The notes under the pieces are model-generated. The model did no database searches, was not told the DNA's origin, and worked only from the letters and a program-made list of their open reading frames with translations. 64,000 nucleotides of DNA from Paludisphaera borealis (lineage in GTDB: Bacteria > Planctomycetota > Planctomycetia > Isosphaerales > Isosphaeraceae), in contig NZ_CP019082.1 of the NCBI RefSeq assembly GCF_001956985.1, forward strand, positions 5,642,001 through 5,706,000, in the 5' to 3' direction. Position numbers and translations under genes: made by a program. The stretch's first letter is position 1. Each line of letters begins with the position of its first letter. Of the stretch, positions 47,060 through 54,343 are shown piece by piece.

Positions 47060-47185
47060 GGTCACGCCGAATCGTCCGCGGAACTCGCCTTCGTATCGCA
47101 CCGATTCCTCGACGCGCCAGGAGATTGGATCTCCAGGCGAGCCGAAGGGTCGCCTCCTCAAGAACCATTACCAGGGTTGGAATGC

Positions 47186-48172
47186 ATGGCGATCTCGATT
47201 GAACAGGTCATCGACCGAATTCCCGCCTGGTCGACCCGTTCTCCCATCGTCGAGCCTCTCATCGGCGGCCTGACCAACCAGGCCTACCACGTTACGGTGG
47301 ACGGAGAGGAATTCGTCGTGCGCGTTCCCGGCGACGGGACGGAATGGTTAGCCATCGACCGCGCCAACGAACTGCACAACACGCTGGCCGCGGCCGAGAC
47401 GGGGATCTCTCCGAAGGTCGTCCATCACATTCCCGATCTGAACGTCCTGATCCTCGAATTCATCCCCGCAGAGACCATGACGCTGGCCTCGATGCATCGC
47501 CCCGGGATGCCCACTCAGATCGCCCGGGCGCTCGGGCATCTCCACGCGGGGCCGCGTTTCCTCCATGACTTCAACATGTTCGAAGTGATCCGGCGCTATC
47601 TTCGGATCACGCAGGAGCTTCGGATTCGGATCCCGGACGACTATCTCGGTTACATGCCCATGGTCGGGCGCATCGAGTCCGCCTTCGCCCGTCGTCCGAT
47701 CGCCACGGTCCCCTGTCATAACGATCTTCTGGCGGCCAACATCCTGGACGACGGCCGGCGGCTCTGGCTGATCGACTTCGAGTACAGCGGCAACAACGAT
47801 CCGACGTTCGACCTCGGCAACACCTGCCAGGAGCAGGAGTACGACGAGCCTCGCGTCGTCGAGGCGTGCGCCGCGTACTTCGGCGACGCCTACCCGGACA
47901 GGCTCGCCCGGATGAAGCTCAACATCCTCCTGTCGAACGTCGGCTGGACCCTCTGGGCCGCGATCCAGGCGACCGTCTCCACGATCGATTTCGACTTCTG
48001 GAGCTGGGTCGACCAACGCTGGGACCGCGCCCGGGCGACCCTGAATTCGACCGACTTCGAGCGCTGGCTGCTTGAGATCGAGTCCTCGGAGCCGTTCGAC
48101 GAGGCTCGGTCGAGCACCAGCATGACCCGGACGGGAGGCCGTGCCCCCAGCGGCACCGGCTGCCCGTTCTGA
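47186..48172 (+). CDS. Choline/ethanolamine-kinase-like phosphotransferase ending in TGCPF
   Basis: A 328-residue protein with the aminoglycoside/choline phosphotransferase fold. Motifs: the substrate/nucleotide loop LIGGLTNQAYHVTV, FVVRVPGDG with the ATP lysine replaced by arginine, the catalytic CHNDLLAANILDD, the DFG-like WLIDFEYSGNNDPTFDLGN. This is the LicA/choline-kinase subfamily, which primes choline or ethanolamine for phospholipid or LPS decoration. The final residues SGTGCPF share the last five with the upstream redoxin, and 19 bases at the gene ends are identical. The ATG at 47186 is chosen; a TTG three codons upstream is possible. No CDP-choline genes lie near. Confidence 0.88.
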   Translation: MAISIEQVIDRIPAWSTRSPIVEPLIGGLTNQAYHVTVDGEEFVVRVPGDGTEWLAIDRANELHNTLAAAETGISPKVVHHIPDLNVLILEFIPAETMTLASMHRPGMPTQIARALGHLHAGPRFLHDFNMFEVIRRYLRITQELRIRIPDDYLGYMPMVGRIESAFARRPIATVPCHNDLLAANILDDGRRLWLIDFEYSGNNDPTFDLGNTCQEQEYDEPRVVEACAAYFGDAYPDRLARMKLNILLSNVGWTLWAAIQATVSTIDFDFWSWVDQRWDRARATLNSTDFERWLLEIESSEPFDEARSSTSMTRTGGRAPSGTGCPF

Positions 48173-48216: not shown

Positions 48217-48462
48217 TCAGGCCCCGTCATTCTCGGCCGAGCGGTCGACCTTCCTGGGCGCGAAGTGGTAACAATAGAACAGGCCGGCCGCGAGAAGCAG
48301 GGCGCCCCACCAGAGGTCGGCGTGCAGCCAGGCCAGGACGACCGGGCGCTCGGGGGGGACGGCCAGATGGTAGAGGCCCTCGCCGGTGATGACCACGCCG
48401 TAGAAGGCGAGCAGGACGCCGACGAAGAACCAGATCGAGACGGCTTCGGGCTTTGACTTCAT
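48217..48462 (-). CDS. Small two-helix membrane protein of the WWG type, copy 1
   Basis: An 81-residue protein with two predicted helices (IWFFVGVLLAFYGVVITG and LWWGALLLAAGLFYCYHF) joined by a loop with a Pro-Glu-Arg-Pro turn. It is homologous to the protein at 50849: both show ITGxG, a D-containing loop, WWGxxxLAxG and F-Y at the same places. In both cases the gene follows an SSS symporter gene on the same strand, here after 13 bases, so co-translation and a subunit or regulatory role for the symporter are plausible. GGGGGA precedes the ATG. No family name is known to me. Confidence 0.8.
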   Translation of the reverse strand: MKSKPEAVSIWFFVGVLLAFYGVVITGEGLYHLAVPPERPVVLAWLHADLWWGALLLAAGLFYCYHFAPRKVDRSAENDGA

Positions 48463-48475
48463 CGACGACTCCCCC

Positions 48476-50194
48476 TTACCAGAAATAGAGGTTGAGGGCC
48501 ACGAACACGATGGCGACGGCGTACGCCCAGAAGATCGGCCGCCTCCAGAGCGCGACGTCCTGCTCGGAAGGGATCGAGGTGCAGCCGTAGACCAGCCCGA
48601 CCAGCTCCGAATCGGGCTTGGGACGTGTGCAGAGGCTGACCGCCACGGTGACGACCACGCAGATGATCCACGACCAGAGGCCCCGGTAAAGGTTCTCGGC
48701 CATGTCCTTAGCGTGCGGCGAGAGGGCCACGTACTGCAAGGCGCTCGGGTCGAGCTTCACCCAGGCCCACATGGCGATCGACGACAGCGTGCCGATCAGC
48801 AAGCCCCAGAACCCGCCGGCGGACGTTGCGCGTTTCCAGAGCATGCCCAGGATCACGGTGCCGAACAGCGGGGCGATGAAGAAGCTGAAGAGCGCCTGGA
48901 CGTAGTCCATGATGCTCTGGAACTCCATGACCAGGTACGCCGTGCCGATGCTCGCCATGACGCCGAGGATCGTGCACCAGCGGCCCATCGCGACGTAGTG
49001 GGCGTCGTCGGCGTCGGGCTTGATGAAGGCGCGGTAGAGGTCGTAGGTCCAGACCGTCGCGAAGGCGCTGACGTTGCCGGCCATTCCCGCCATGAAGCCG
49101 GCGATCAGGGCCGTGATCCCCAGCCCCAGCAGCCCCGGCCCGCAGTATCGGGCCAGCATCAGCGGCAAGACCTCGTTATAGCTGTGACCGCCGGTCGCCA
49201 CCGCCTCGGCCTCGCCGACGAGCTTGTCGGGCAGGAGCGCCAGGCCCAGCAGGCCCGGGACGATCACGATGAACGGGACCATCATCTTGAACGCCGCGCC
49301 GATGATCGGCGCCATCTTGGCGGCGCGGAGGTCCTTGGCCGCGAGCACCCGCTGGACGACCAGGAAGTCGGTGGTCCAGTAGCCGAACGAGATCACCCAG
49401 CCGAGGCCGAAGACGATCCCCGTCCAGTGCACGCCCATCGGGTTGTCCTGGAACCCGCCGAGCGTGCTCCAGGCGTGCGTGAAGTCGGTCCGGCCGAGCT
49501 GCTCGGCGATCCTCGCCTGCAATCCGGCCCAGCCGCCGGCCTCGTACAGGCCCAGGATCGGGATCAGGAGCGCGCCGGCCCAGATCAAGACGAACTGGAG
49601 CACCTCGTTGAAGATCGCCGACTTGAGGCCGCCGAGCGCGACGTACGCGGCGACCGTCAGCGACGAGACCCAGATGCTGAAGTTGATGTCCCAGCCCAGG
49701 ACCACTTTCATCACCAAGGCCATCGAGTACATGTTGATGCCGCTCATCAGAACGGTCATGAACGCGAACGAGATCGCGGCGAGCGCCCGGCTCGGCTCGC
49801 CGAACCGGAGCTGGAGGTAGCCGGGGACCGAGTGGGTTTTGGAGATGTAATAGAAGGGCATCATCACGATGCCGAGGAAGAGCATGGCCGGGATCGCGCC
49901 AATCCAGTACCAGTGAACGGCGAGCAGCCCGTACTGGTACGACGCCGCGGCCCATCCCATGAGTTCGAGGGAGCCGAGGTTGGCCGACAGGAAGCTCAGG
50001 CCGGCGATCCAGGCGGTCATCTCGCGGCCGGCCATGAAGAAGTCTTCGCCGGTCTGGGTCTGGCCCTTGAGGTACAGGCCGATGGCCAGCACCATGGCGA
50101 AGTAGGCGGCGATGATCACCAGGTCGGCGACGCCGAGCGAGAACAGCGATTCGGCGGGCGCGGCGGCGGCGGCGATCAGAGGGAAGACTGGCAT
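48476..50194 (-). CDS. Sodium:solute symporter (SSS family, SGLT-like), copy 1
   Basis: A 572-residue transporter with the usual many hydrophobic helices. SSS features are GREMTAWIAGLSFLSANLGS, the long loop VPGYLQLRFGEPSRAL, LGGLKSAIFNEVLQ, the sodium-site region SFGYWTTDFLVVQR, GMAGNVSAFATVWTYD and a final helix FVALNLYFW. It is closer to the glucose/sugar SGLT branch than to proline carriers, judging by the GYWTTDFLVVQR segment. It is a paralog of the symporter at 51096. The small two-helix protein follows after 13 bases. The substrate is probably a sugar, given the aldose 1-epimerase gene of the same block. Confidence 0.92.
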   Translation of the reverse strand: MPVFPLIAAAAAPAESLFSLGVADLVIIAAYFAMVLAIGLYLKGQTQTGEDFFMAGREMTAWIAGLSFLSANLGSLELMGWAAASYQYGLLAVHWYWIGAIPAMLFLGIVMMPFYYISKTHSVPGYLQLRFGEPSRALAAISFAFMTVLMSGINMYSMALVMKVVLGWDINFSIWVSSLTVAAYVALGGLKSAIFNEVLQFVLIWAGALLIPILGLYEAGGWAGLQARIAEQLGRTDFTHAWSTLGGFQDNPMGVHWTGIVFGLGWVISFGYWTTDFLVVQRVLAAKDLRAAKMAPIIGAAFKMMVPFIVIVPGLLGLALLPDKLVGEAEAVATGGHSYNEVLPLMLARYCGPGLLGLGITALIAGFMAGMAGNVSAFATVWTYDLYRAFIKPDADDAHYVAMGRWCTILGVMASIGTAYLVMEFQSIMDYVQALFSFFIAPLFGTVILGMLWKRATSAGGFWGLLIGTLSSIAMWAWVKLDPSALQYVALSPHAKDMAENLYRGLWSWIICVVVTVAVSLCTRPKPDSELVGLVYGCTSIPSEQDVALWRRPIFWAYAVAIVFVALNLYFW

Positions 50195-50320
50195 GGCGGC
50201 GTCTCTCGATGCCCCGGCGGGTCGGCACGCGGCGTTCTCGCCCGCGAAGGGTGGTAAGCTTACATCAAGAACCTAAATCCAAGTCCGACCTCTGGGCGAC
50301 GGACCCTGGGCGACCGACGA

Positions 50321-50758
50321 TCAGTAATCGAAATCGTCGGTCACGATCGAATCGCGTTGATCTAACGGGATAAACTTGGAGGATTTTGCCTTGCCCGGCG
50401 CCCACTTCGGCAGACCGCAGTGGAGGCACCGTCGAGTGAACCAGTAGTTGCCCAACCTGAGGAAGAAAGGTCGTCCGCAACATGGGCAGGGCCAGAAGAT
50501 CAGCCTCAGACGGGCGACCATGAGGCAGAGCATCGGCGGCAGTAAGACAGTCAGTAAGGTAACCCAACCGGTGGGAGGAAACTCGCGGCCGGTGAGAAAT
50601 TCCAGGACGATGGCTCCGGAGAGCCAGAGCGGTATCAGGAGGAGCGCCAGCCAGAACACATGACGTCGTCGCTTGTACTCGTCCCAAGCAGGATCGACAA
50701 CGCCCTCAAGACGCTTCCGGGCGTGCTGGCGTACACAAAGTCGAGCCAACGGCCGCAT
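50321..50758 (-). CDS. Two-helix membrane protein with zinc-ribbon-like cysteines
   Basis: A 145-residue protein with a basic N-terminus, helices at about residues 37-55 and 66-83, and a C-terminal domain with CPCCGRP and a second CLHCG pair 20 residues on, likely a small zinc ribbon on the cytoplasmic side. An aspartate-rich end follows. GGGGAG lies nine bases before ATG 50758; GTG one codon earlier is also possible. It stands between the two symporter cassettes on the same strand, but with gaps of 90 and 126 bases, so it need not be co-expressed. Unknown function. Confidence 0.72.
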   Translation of the reverse strand: MRPLARLCVRQHARKRLEGVVDPAWDEYKRRRHVFWLALLLIPLWLSGAIVLEFLTGREFPPTGWVTLLTVLLPPMLCLMVARLRLIFWPCPCCGRPFFLRLGNYWFTRRCLHCGLPKWAPGKAKSSKFIPLDQRDSIVTDDFDY

Positions 50759-50848
50759 CACCGCTCACTCCCCGAGACCAGACAAAATCCCTGAGCACCC
50801 GACAGCCGGTCGCTCCACCCGAACGCTATAGGTGGAGTGACTCCTCGA

Positions 50849-51082
50849 TCAAGGGGCTTGAGAAGGAGCCTGGGCCGTCCGCATCGTGGCCCGGCGGCCG
50901 TAGTAGAACATGGCGGCTCCGAAGGCGAGCATCACCAGTCCCCACCAGATGTTGACGTTGATATCGAGCGAGCGCGCGTACAACTCCGGATTGGTGAAAT
51001 GGGTCACGACGCCGAAGCCGGTGATCAAGGCCCCCAGCGAGAGGAACAGGAGGCCGATGGGAACGCGGATGTCGAGATTCAT
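50849..51082 (-). CDS. Small two-helix membrane protein of the WWG type, copy 2
   Basis: A 77-residue protein with helices VPIGLLFLSLGALITGFG and IWWGLVMLAFGAAMFYYG. It aligns with the protein at 48217 across both helices (ITGxG, WWGxxxLAxG, FxYY). It begins 13 bases after the stop of the second SSS symporter, exactly the distance seen in the first cassette. The Ala/Pro-rich tail has no homology to copy 1. Family unknown. Confidence 0.8.
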   Translation of the reverse strand: MNLDIRVPIGLLFLSLGALITGFGVVTHFTNPELYARSLDINVNIWWGLVMLAFGAAMFYYGRRATMRTAQAPSQAP

Positions 51083-51095
51083 CTGGATCCAAACC

Positions 51096-52901
51096 TTATC
51101 TGAAGATCACGTTGAGGGCGATGGCCGCCAGGACCACGACGACGCCGAACGCCTCGGGCTTCTTGTACCAGACGACGTTATGCTCGACGATTCGGGGCGT
51201 CAGCGAGTAGACGAGCCCGGTCAAGTCTTCTTCCCTGTGGGGCTTGGTGAAGAAGCTGACGACGATCGTCACGACGAAGCAGACCGTCCAGGCGTAGATC
51301 GCCGCCCAGAAGTTCTGGGCCATCTCGTTGCGATACGAGGTGATGGGGACGCCGGACCAGAGGTAGCTGATCCATCCCCCCTTGACGCCGGCCGTCGAGC
51401 CTTGCGGAAGGCTGACGCCGTGGTGGATCGCCGCGGCCGTGATGCCCGCGAGCAGGCCGTAGAAGGCTCCGTTGGCCGTGGCCCGCTTCCAGAACATGCC
51501 GAGCAGGAACGTCGCGAGCAGGGGGGCGTTGACGCAAGCGAAGACGAGCTGGAGCAGGTCCATGATGTTGTTGAAGCTCGTCGCGACGTAGGCCGCCGCG
51601 ATCGAGACGAGAGTGCCGAACAACGTCGCGAAGTGCCCCATCCATAGGTAGTGCTTGTCGCTCGCTTGGGGCTTGATGTACGCCTGGTAGATGTCGAAGG
51701 TCCAGACCGTGTTGAACGCCGTGATGTTGCCGGCCATCCCCGACATGAAGCTGGCCAGGAGCGCCGTGAGGCCGAGGCCGAGCATGCCGGTCGGAAGGTA
51801 GTGGAGCAGCATGTTCGGGATGGCCCGGTCGTAGTCGAGCACCGGCTTGCCGTCGGTGTCGAGCTTGACCTCGCCCGACGCGTCGAGCTTCGCCGGGATG
51901 ATCCCCTTGCCCATCGCCTCGGCCTTGCTCACGGTCGTCCCCTCGACGGCCGTCGGCGTGGGGAGCGAGACGGCGATCAAGCCCGGCAGGATGACGAGGA
52001 ACGGGAAGATCATCTTGGGCACGGCGGCGATCAACGGCGTGCGGCGCGCCGCCGACATTGAATCGGCGGCCATGGCTCGCTGAACCACCAGGAAGTCGGT
52101 GCACCAGTAGCCGAACGAGAGGACGAAGCCCAGCCCCATCGCCAGTCCGAACACCTCCACGCCCAGCGGGCTGGTCTCGGCGCTGGTCATCCCTTGCCAG
52201 ACGTGGGTAAAACCATTCGGCACCTTCTGAACCAGGCCGTCCCAGCCGCCGACGTTCTTGAGCCCGAGCAAGACCAGGGGGAAGAAGCCGGCCACGATCA
52301 GGAAGAACTGGAGCACCTCGTTGTAGATCGCGCTGGTGAGGCCGCCGAGGTAGACGTATCCCAGCGTGATGATCGCCGCGACCACGATGCTGAGATGGAA
52401 GATCCAGCTCATCGGCAGACCCAGGGATTGCATCAGCGAGTCGAAGATGTGCAGGTTCTCGATCAGCAGCGCCATCGCATACATCGAAATGCCCGACGAC
52501 ATGACGGTCATCAGGGCGAACGCGATCGCGTTCAGCCCCCGCGTCTTCTCGTCGAACCGCAGCCGGAGGTATTCGGGGACCGACCGGGCGCGGGAGCCGT
52601 AGTAGAACGGCATCATGAAGATCCCGACGAACGCCATGGCGGGTATGGCGCCCAGCCAGTAGAGGTGCGACGTAGCGAGGCCGTACTTGGCGCCCGACGC
52701 GGCCATCCCGATCACTTCCTGGGCGCCCAGGTTGGCCGAGATGAACGCGAGGCCCGCCACCCATGCGGGGATCGACCGGCCCGACAGGAAGAAGTCGGCG
52801 CTGGTCTTCATATAGCGCTTCAGCGCGAAGCCGATCCCCAGCACGAAGGCGAAGTAGATCACCATGATCAAGTAATCGATCCACGCCAGTGTCGTATGCA
52901 T
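51096..52901 (-). CDS. Sodium:solute symporter (SSS family, SGLT-like), copy 2
   Basis: A 601-residue transporter homologous to copy 1 with the same landmarks: GRSIPAWVAGLAFISANLGA, VPEYLRLRFDEKTRGL, LGGLTSAIYNEVLQF, SFGYWCTDFLVVQRAMA and GMAGNITAFNTVWTFD. It has an extra loop of about 30 residues around DASGEVKLDTDGKPVLDY, not present in copy 1, between helices in the middle of the protein. AGGA precedes the ATG at 52901; upstream in-frame residues are Arg-rich and not part of the protein. It lies downstream of the aldose 1-epimerase gene (130 bases), so sugar uptake is likely. Confidence 0.92.
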   Translation of the reverse strand: MHTTLAWIDYLIMVIYFAFVLGIGFALKRYMKTSADFFLSGRSIPAWVAGLAFISANLGAQEVIGMAASGAKYGLATSHLYWLGAIPAMAFVGIFMMPFYYGSRARSVPEYLRLRFDEKTRGLNAIAFALMTVMSSGISMYAMALLIENLHIFDSLMQSLGLPMSWIFHLSIVVAAIITLGYVYLGGLTSAIYNEVLQFFLIVAGFFPLVLLGLKNVGGWDGLVQKVPNGFTHVWQGMTSAETSPLGVEVFGLAMGLGFVLSFGYWCTDFLVVQRAMAADSMSAARRTPLIAAVPKMIFPFLVILPGLIAVSLPTPTAVEGTTVSKAEAMGKGIIPAKLDASGEVKLDTDGKPVLDYDRAIPNMLLHYLPTGMLGLGLTALLASFMSGMAGNITAFNTVWTFDIYQAYIKPQASDKHYLWMGHFATLFGTLVSIAAAYVATSFNNIMDLLQLVFACVNAPLLATFLLGMFWKRATANGAFYGLLAGITAAAIHHGVSLPQGSTAGVKGGWISYLWSGVPITSYRNEMAQNFWAAIYAWTVCFVVTIVVSFFTKPHREEDLTGLVYSLTPRIVEHNVVWYKKPEAFGVVVVLAAIALNVIFR

Positions 52902-53031: not shown

Positions 53032-54183
53032 TCACCTCGTCGAGAACGTGTAAACCGTCGTCTGGGAGTACTTTTTACCGGGTTCGAGGACCGTGTTGGG
53101 GAACGACGGGTGGTTGATCGAGTCCGGGAAGTGCTGGGTTTCCAGGCAGATGGCTTGATGCTGCTTGTAGGCGACGCCCCCCTTGCCCTTGTCGGTGCCG
53201 TCGAGGAAGTTGCCGGTGTAGAACTGGACGCCGGGCTCGGTCGTCGACACCTCCAGCACGCGGCCCGACTTCGGGTCGTAGACGTGCGCGGCGAGGGTCA
53301 GCTTCCCGTCCGGGTTGTTGAGCACGAAGTTGTGATCGAAGCCGCGAGGCTCGTTCTGAAGGCGATCGATCCGGGCGCCGATCACGGTCGGCTTGCGGAG
53401 GTCGTACGGCGTGTCGGCGACGGGGGCGATCTCGCCGGTGGGGATCAGCGTGTCGTCGACGGGCGTGTAGCGGTCGGCGTTCAGCGTGATCTCGTGGTCG
53501 CGGATCGTGTCGCTGTTCTTGCCGCCGAGGTTGAAGTAACTGTGGTTCGAGAGATTCACCGGCGTGGCCTTGTCGGTCTCGGCCGTGTATTCGATCTTCA
53601 GCTTGTCGTCGGCGGTCACGGTGAACAGGATACTGACCGACAGGTTGCCCGGATAGCCTTCCTCGCCGTCGGGGCTCGTGTACGACAGCCGGACCGACGG
53701 CCCGTCGCCGCTCTCCAGCTCCTCGGCCTTCCAGACGACCTTGTCGAAGCCCTTGAGGCCGCCGTGCAGCGTGTTGGGGCCGTTGTTGGTCGCCAGCGTG
53801 TACTCGTGCCCGTTGAGCGTGAACTTCCCCTTGGCGACGCGGTTGGCGACGCGGCCGACCGTGGCGCCGAAGTACGGATGCTTGCCCAGGTAGCCGGTCA
53901 GATCGTCGAAGCCGAGCACGACGTCGTCGAGCTTGCCGTCGCGGTCGGGAACCTCGATCGAGGTGATGATCGCCCCGTAGGTCGAAATCTTGACGGTGAT
54001 CCGGCCGTTCTGGAGCACGTAGAGGTCGACTGTCTTGCCGTCCGGCGTCTTGCCGAATGCCACCTTGCTCAAAGTCCCAGCCTCCGCGTTCATTGCGCCA
54101 GTCAGACCGACGACGGCCGTCGAAAGAAGAAGCCCCACGGCGAAGACGGACGCCCGCCCTCTCAGGTCTGTAAACCTACTCAT
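53032..54183 (-). CDS. galM: Aldose 1-epimerase (mutarotase), exported
   Basis: Interconverts alpha and beta anomers of aldoses such as galactose and glucose. The 383-residue protein has an N-terminal signal (VFAVGLLLSTAVVGLTGAM) so it acts outside the cytoplasm, preparing sugars for uptake. Family blocks: YGAIITSIEVPDRDGKLDDVVLGFD (seen in pieces such as DDVVLGFDDL), the FGATVGRVANRVAKG motif, the catalytic histidine NHSYFNLGG, and the closing ICLETQHFPDSINHPSFP holding the catalytic glutamate (ETQHFPD). GAGG precedes ATG 54183; the longer frame has no signal peptide. It leads the symporter block. Confidence 0.93.
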   Translation of the reverse strand: MSRFTDLRGRASVFAVGLLLSTAVVGLTGAMNAEAGTLSKVAFGKTPDGKTVDLYVLQNGRITVKISTYGAIITSIEVPDRDGKLDDVVLGFDDLTGYLGKHPYFGATVGRVANRVAKGKFTLNGHEYTLATNNGPNTLHGGLKGFDKVVWKAEELESGDGPSVRLSYTSPDGEEGYPGNLSVSILFTVTADDKLKIEYTAETDKATPVNLSNHSYFNLGGKNSDTIRDHEITLNADRYTPVDDTLIPTGEIAPVADTPYDLRKPTVIGARIDRLQNEPRGFDHNFVLNNPDGKLTLAAHVYDPKSGRVLEVSTTEPGVQFYTGNFLDGTDKGKGGVAYKQHQAICLETQHFPDSINHPSFPNTVLEPGKKYSQTTVYTFSTR

Positions 54184-54343
54184 GCGAAACCTCGCCGCCC
54201 AGAGCGGGCGATGTCGACCCCGGTGCGTCTTCAGGAAGCCGCGCGTCGAGACGCGCTTGCGACGTAGACCGATCATGGTGACTCGCCCCACCGACAATTG
54301 CAACGGAGTAGTCGGACTTCAATGAACGGCGTCGACGGTGAGG

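What the first reader, a model, noticed from the sequence alone, without database searches (positions are those of the whole stretch)
48217..52901. Two SSS symporter cassettes, each with a homologous 80-residue two-helix partner at the same 13-base distance
Seen: the proteins at 48217-48462 and 50849-51082 share ITGxG, WWGxxxLAxG and F-Y positions and both start 13 bases after the stop of a paralogous SSS symporter gene. Known: some SSS members (for example acetate permease ActP with YjcH) are encoded beside a small membrane protein. Inference: the WWG proteins are subunits or regulators of planctomycete sugar symporters, and the whole pair was duplicated. I know of no description of this pair.
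Basis: partly seen in the sequence, partly recalled or inferred. Interest (0 to 1): 0.62.

Follow-up and report, generated by a model that had tools for sequence, protein, structure and literature searches.

The report
Two-helix partners of bacterial sugar symporters
A family of membrane proteins about 75 residues long, not named in the family libraries searched, is nearly always encoded just after one branch of bacterial sugar transporters related to human SGLT1/2 and is probably a dedicated small subunit of them.

Summary
Confirmed: small48 (48217-48462) and small50 (50849-51082) are homologous two-helix proteins, each starting 13 nt after its own SSS symporter (43% identical to each other). 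The shared 13 nt is not a conserved feature: 2 of 82 and 0 of 71 pairs. The pairing is real and old. Searching with the small protein alone, 71 of the 80 loci kept from genome contigs and 82 of 90 Acidobacteriota matches (6 more lie further off) have a symporter upstream on the same strand. Most relatives are acidobacterial, not planctomycete. Downstream genes point to galactose (galK/galT, small50 type) and L-arabinose-like sugars (fucose-isomerase-like, ribulokinase, AraA; small48 type). The symporter fold is closest to human SGLT1/2. The small proteins pass no Pfam/NCBIfam cut-off and show no profile homology to the DUF485 or DUF4212 partners, which lie upstream of their symporters. All 156 aligned partnered symporters carry Gly where SGLTs have the second Na2-site Ser/Thr, and 135 of 136 carry Glu where hSGLT1 has His83; three unpartnered relatives keep Ser/Thr and His. 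Best reading: a new family of dedicated small SSS subunits. Contact and function are not shown; coevolution was inconclusive.

The parts
48217..48462 (-). small48: 81-aa two-helix membrane protein, partner of SSS48
   Evidence: ORF; helices 10-34 and 48-66 in an AlphaFold2 model, mean pLDDT 79.7; relatives beside SSS genes
48463..48475 (-). 13-nt spacer with a G-rich, Shine-Dalgarno-like stretch
   Evidence: sequence; ribosome-binding role inferred
48476..50194 (-). SSS48: 572-aa SSS symporter, SGLT-like; relatives sit in L-arabinose-type operons
   Evidence: Pfam SSF 181.3 bits; nearest solved sequences SGLT1, SGLT2, vSGLT; neighbours of relatives
50849..51082 (-). small50: 77-aa two-helix membrane protein, partner of SSS51
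   Evidence: ORF; homologous to small48
51083..51095 (-). 13-nt spacer
   Evidence: sequence
51096..52901 (-). SSS51: 601-aa SSS symporter; relatives sit in galactose operons
   Evidence: Pfam SSF 164.8 bits; galK 7 of 36 and galT 3 of 36 downstream in relatives
53032..54303 (-). aldose 1-epimerase (GalM family), same strand, 130 bases upstream of SSS51; N-terminus looks like an export signal
   Evidence: Pfam Aldose_epim 351.2 bits, TIGR02636 345.1 bits, under its 397.65 cut-off; signal judged by eye

Best explanation
The WWG proteins are dedicated small subunits of one branch of SGLT-like SSS sugar symporters. Shown: two predicted helices joined by a short loop, a positively charged tail after the second helix (hence probably both ends in the cytoplasm), and a gene that nearly always follows its symporter gene. 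Inferred: translation from the same message gives matched amounts, and the hairpin packs against the outside of the transporter, most likely near the last helix (M13 in SGLT numbering, where MAP17 binds human SGLT2), and is needed for stability, membrane insertion or turnover of the transporter. SSS51/small50 most likely takes up galactose; SSS48-type pairs mostly serve L-arabinose-like sugars, with the substrate of the window's own SSS48 open.
For: Found by the small protein alone, 71 of 80 kept loci (358 relatives in all, best 80 kept) have an SSS gene directly upstream. Acidobacteriota: 61 of 297 genomes, 90 places, 82 with SSS within 500 nt upstream, 6 with SSS 550-1,420 nt upstream, 2 without. 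Planctomycete class: SSS51-type 9 of 9 and SSS48-type 6 of 6 with the small gene. Five Paludisphaera-group genomes have the small gene unlinked, and all five keep the matching long symporter elsewhere; the window's genome lacks both. Distance matrices agree, r 0.87 for 77 pairs and 0.61 within one clade of 55, against at most 0.27 in 1,000 permutations each. Fold of a related symporter nearest to SGLT1/2, Z about 39, up to the last helix. MAP17 is essential for SGLT2 and touches M13 (PMC9616851, passages).
Against: No direct evidence of contact: model coordinates and PAE were not available, and coupling scores did not exceed shuffled pairings (3.05 against 2.57-3.61). Distance agreement is expected from shared descent alone. 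9 of 80, 2 of 90 and 3 of 19 places have no SSS in view, including an orthologous orphan group in Bryobacterales and an orphan heading a sugar operon without symporter.
Confidence: 0.7

Rival explanations
1. The small protein is a regulator or biogenesis factor that acts on the symporter only at times, for example an inhibitor that responds to sugar stress or a helper in membrane insertion, and is not a standing subunit.
For: Orphans exist without a neighbouring symporter, one of them at the head of a sugar operon (L085). Small size and separate gene fit a regulator.
Against: Gaps are mostly short and the order constant, which suggests fixed stoichiometry; a lone inhibitor seldom stays next to its target across phyla (inference).
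Confidence: 0.2
2. The small protein has an unrelated membrane function and merely rides in sugar operons.
For: No contact shown. In some Terriglobales another gene lies between symporter and small gene (L258, L267, L271).
Against: Operons differ (galactose, arabinose-like) and other neighbours change, yet the symporter stays; co-occurrence holds when unlinked.
Confidence: 0.07
3. It is a very distant DUF485 or DUF4212 partner, so the case is a known family.
For: Same size, two helices, beside SSS genes; 16 of 16 DUF485/DUF4212 control loci are beside an SSS gene.
Against: hhalign probability 1.1% against DUF485 and 6.0% against DUF4212; neither appears among Pfam matches with E up to 1; gene order is reversed.
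Confidence: 0.03

Closest known systems
Human SGLT2/SGLT1 with MAP17 (PDZK1IP1)
   Same: A small helical protein beside an SSS sugar symporter with the same fold and extra C-terminal helix
   Different: MAP17 has one membrane helix (recalled); the WWG protein has two predicted helices; no sequence relation was looked for beyond the PDB sequence search, which gave no match
ActP with YjcH (DUF485, PF04341)
   Same: Small two-helix protein gene beside an SSS gene
   Different: No profile homology; small gene upstream of the symporter; substrate acetate (recalled); Na2-site pair A-V in 4 of 5 control loci and G-T in 1
VC_2705-type symporter with DUF4212 (PF13937)
   Same: Small protein gene beside an SSS gene, about the same size
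   Different: No profile homology; small gene upstream; Na2-site pair S-T in the 7 of 11 loci that could be read
vSGLT, the Vibrio Na+/galactose symporter
   Same: SSS fold and sugar-site residues; galactose
   Different: No small partner known to me (recalled); canonical Na2 Ser pair (recalled), Gly here

Membership tests
SSS/SLC5 symporters (PF00474, TIGR00813) | SSF domain above curated cut-off | tested here: met
   181.3 and 164.8 bits against 22.8; TIGR00813 245 and 228.1 against 184
SSS/SLC5 symporters (PF00474, TIGR00813) | SGLT-type fold | tested here: met
   AlphaFold2 model of a related pair, L045, not of the window's own protein: Z about 39 to SGLT1/2, 519-536 residues
SGLT-type sugar symporters | sugar-site residues equivalent to hSGLT1 N78, Y290, W291, K321, Q457 (roles recalled) | tested here: met
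   N 129 of 130 readable, Y and W 156 of 156, K and Q 155 of 156
SGLT-type sugar symporters | hSGLT1 His83 position | tested here: not met
   Glu in 135 of 136 readable rows; His in the three unpartnered relatives
SGLT-type sugar symporters | Na2 site with Ser/Thr pair (vSGLT S364/S365, recalled) | tested here: not met
   first position S 140, A 16; second position G 156 of 156
DUF485 (YjcH) partners | sequence homology | tested here: not met
   hhalign probability 1.1% against a 5-row alignment; not among Pfam matches with E up to 1
DUF485 (YjcH) partners | small gene upstream of the SSS gene | tested here: not met
   5 of 5 control loci have that order; here the small gene is downstream
DUF4212 (VC_2705) partners | sequence homology and upstream gene | tested here: not met
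   hhalign probability 6.0% against an 11-row alignment; 11 of 11 control loci have the small gene upstream
MAP17-like subunits | single membrane helix (recalled) | tested here: not met
   two helices predicted, 10-34 and 48-66
MAP17-like subunits | binds M13 and is needed for transport | not testable with these tools
   no coordinates or PAE returned; coupling analysis inconclusive

The most novel reading that the evidence does not exclude
The WWG protein marks a separate branch of SGLT-like symporters with changed ion coupling. All 156 aligned partnered symporters have Gly in place of the second Na2-site Ser/Thr, and 135 of 136 readable ones have Glu in the sugar site where hSGLT1 has His83, while three unpartnered planctomycete relatives keep Ser-Ser or Ser-Thr and His. 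Many members come from acid soils and peat. So this may be a two-subunit sugar/H+ (or otherwise non-canonical) symporter in which the invariant Glu carries the proton and the small subunit holds the transporter in shape, a bacterial counterpart of SGLT2-MAP17.
Probability: 0.2. Interest if true: 0.72.

Novelty: new variant of a known kind. Interest (0 to 1): 0.56.

Why it matters
Only a few small partners of SSS transporters are known, and why a symporter needs one is open even for SGLT2-MAP17. A compact bacterial pair from the SGLT branch, with two paralogous versions side by side and a residue signature that sets the partnered symporters apart, would let the need for a partner and its link to ion coupling be tested in a simple host. 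It also gives a name and probable role to a family in Acidobacteriota and Planctomycetota that the libraries searched leave unnamed.

Tried and rejected
Thirteen-nt spacing as a signal: rejected. Local recent duplication: rejected, both clades are found in other phyla and the pairs are unlinked in some relatives. Match to cytochrome c oxidase subunit III (L031): a chance membrane match, judged by eye. Weak Pfam/NCBIfam matches of the small proteins (cytochrome b561 17 bits against 30.1; Na+/H+ antiporter G1 15.7 against 158; holin 13.4 against 28.4) are under cut-off and inconsistent; PHROGs gave nothing under E 0.08; PDB sequences gave none; PADLOC was not searched. Coevolution: the first run was led by gap columns; with those removed the top inter-protein score lay inside the range of shuffled pairings. 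Model of the pair: high confidence for both parts, but no coordinates or PAE, so no interface claim. VIA-align lists only whole-symporter matches; the small part is hardly tested there. Clean substrate split between clades: not clean, since galK also follows 3 of 44 SSS48-like pairs (a sub-group about 52% identical), and 30 of 38 and 30 of 44 pairs have none of the three enzymes looked for in the downstream stretch held. An arabinose operon of the acidobacterial kind was not found in the window's own genome: its one PF02952 gene is not of that type.
Full report
WHAT IS THERE. Each small gene starts 13 nt after the stop of its symporter. The small proteins are homologous (28% over 64 aa, E 2e-7 for the single comparison), and so are the symporters (43%). 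AlphaFold2 gives small48 two helices, 10-34 and 48-66 (mean pLDDT 79.7, pTM 0.56). The tail after the second helix carries net positive charge in 145 of 156 relatives, which suggests both ends in the cytoplasm. Neither small protein passes a Pfam or NCBIfam cut-off. [quoted passage not shown] That name is an inference.

THE 13-nt DISTANCE. It is 13 in 2 of 82 Acidobacteriota pairs and 0 of 71 genome contigs pairs. In 16 planctomycete loci it is 13 three times and 12 five times, so a value near 12-13 is common in that phylum, but the distance as such is not conserved (about 2 to 400 nt over the sets). The two window spacers differ in sequence.

ASSOCIATION, SEARCHED FROM THE SMALL PROTEIN. Genome contigs: 408 stretches matched a pattern, 358 encode a relative, the best 80 were kept; 71 of 80 have an SSS gene ending within 400 nt upstream on the same strand. 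By record title about 65 of the 80 are acidobacterial, 10 planctomycete, 2 verrucomicrobial, and one each Bacteroidetes, Nevskia and unnamed. The 9 exceptions include what looks like one orthologous orphan group in Bryobacterales (L069, L084, L086, L113), the Paludisphaera orphan L122, and L085, which heads an operon with isomerase-, kinase-, aldolase- and GalM-like genes but no symporter. Acidobacteriota: 61 of 297 genomes, 90 places; 82 of 90 have SSS within 500 nt upstream, 6 have it about 550-1,420 nt upstream, and 2 have none in view (L191; L193 with only 615 nt of contig upstream). G601 and G667 give near-identical rows, so the 90 are not all independent. In 12 genomes reached through loci, 16 of 19 places have SSS upstream. 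Planctomycete phylum: 5 of 392 genomes hold the small protein, with only 14 candidates scored per genome; the four besides the window's own all lie beside SSS.

SEARCHED FROM THE SYMPORTER. In 292 phylum genomes SSS48 relatives at E up to 1e-90 occur in three, G000, G353 and G133; all three hold the small protein beside it. In 148 class genomes (read): SSS51-type 9 of 9 and SSS48-type 6 of 6 genomes have the small gene beside it. A third, longer type (700 aa and more) has it beside it in 3 of 8 genomes. In the other 5 of 8 (G028-G032) no small gene is beside it, but each of those genomes has one unlinked small gene of that type. G000 has neither the long symporter nor the orphan. Three symporters about 30% identical have no small gene beside them. 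This co-occurrence without linkage is the best evidence that the link is functional, though five related species are close to one event.

PAIRED HISTORY. Distance matrices of symporter and small protein agree (77 pairs r 0.87; 55 pairs of one clade r 0.61; maximum of 1,000 permutations 0.27 in each). Shared descent alone would give much of this.

SUBSTRATE. Genes after the small gene in genome-contig loci (54 of 60 downstream ORFs scanned): Fucose_iso_C 30, FGGY kinase 7; NCBIfam's sulfoquinovose-isomerase model touches 31 and ribulokinase 7. Upstream ORFs (39 of 50 scanned): LacI 5, GH127 beta-L-arabinofuranosidase 3, AraA 1. In the Acidobacteriota sample: SSS51 clade, galactokinase 7 and galactose-1-phosphate uridylyltransferase 3 of 36; SSS48 clade, Fucose_iso_C 9 and AraA 2 of 40. 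Against a clean split: galK follows 3 of 44 SSS48-like pairs, and 60 of 82 pairs show none of the three enzymes searched for in the downstream stretch held. In the window an aldose 1-epimerase lies upstream of SSS51, and the genome has a galactokinase elsewhere. So galactose for SSS51 is likely; L-arabinose-like sugars fit SSS48-type pairs in Acidobacteriota, but that operon was not found in this genome.

FOLD AND SITE. SSS48's nearest solved sequences are SGLT1 (E 2.9e-57), SGLT2 and vSGLT. A model of a related pair (L045, read through its stop codon to join the two; 29 rows; pLDDT 80.5, pTM 0.81) matches SGLT1/2 at Z about 39 up to the last helix. Helices of the small part have pLDDT blocks of 76-92, but no coordinates or PAE were returned, so contact is not shown. 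Coupling analysis on 107 pairs (effective 79) gave a top inter-protein score of 3.05 against 2.57-3.61 in six shuffles: inconclusive. In PMC9616851 (passages) MAP17 is called essential for hSGLT2 and its M13 is said to touch MAP17. That the WWG protein sits there is inference by analogy.

A RESIDUE SIGNATURE. In 156 aligned partnered symporters the second residue of the Na2 pair is Gly in all 156, the first Ser in 140 and Ala in 16. Glu stands at the hSGLT1 His83 position in 135 of 136 readable rows. Sugar-site residues are kept. The three unpartnered planctomycete relatives read Ser-Ser, Ser-Thr and Ser-Ser, with His. DUF4212-linked symporters read Ser-Thr in the 7 of 11 that could be read; DUF485-linked ones Ala-Val in 4 of 5 and Gly-Thr in 1. 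The roles of these residues are recalled. The 156 rows were collected because they have the partner, and only three unpartnered close relatives were compared, so the correlation is a lead. It means Na+ coupling should not be taken for granted.

KNOWN KINDS. DUF485 and DUF4212 loci from the same phylum (5 of 99 and 11 of 99 genomes) lie beside SSS in 16 of 16, always with the small gene first. Profile comparison gives 1.1% and 6.0% probability. The WWG family is thus an unrelated third kind of bacterial small partner with reversed gene order, on the sugar branch. Literature searches (listings only) showed no description of it; the library lacks most subscription papers.

Noticed in passing
window 50321-50761, - strand: 146-aa ORF between the two cassettes with cysteine pairs (CPCC, CLHC) after two hydrophobic stretches; no Pfam or NCBIfam match over cut-off.
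   Followed up: no
window 53032-54303, - strand; L085 5677-5967: The aldose 1-epimerase beside SSS51 begins with what looks like an export signal, and the one in L085 with a lipoprotein-like one (by eye): exported mutarotases beside sugar uptake genes.
   Followed up: no
window 47177-48172, + strand: Choline-kinase/APH-type kinase, best NCBIfam match the guanitoxin kinase GntI model, well under its cut-off (176.8 against 357 bits).
   Followed up: no
L119, L135, L140, L157-L162, L164: A long symporter type (about 690-790 aa open frames) with an extra soluble-looking insert near SSS48 residue 485; in five Paludisphaera-group genomes its small partner gene has moved away.
   Followed up: partly
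L258, L267, L271: A gene of about 400 aa, resembling a GT61-type glycosyltransferase by eye, lies between symporter and small gene in some Terriglobales.
   Followed up: no
L031 (G023): Cytochrome c oxidase subunit III gives a weak match to small48 through a YMWWG stretch; taken as chance.
   Followed up: no
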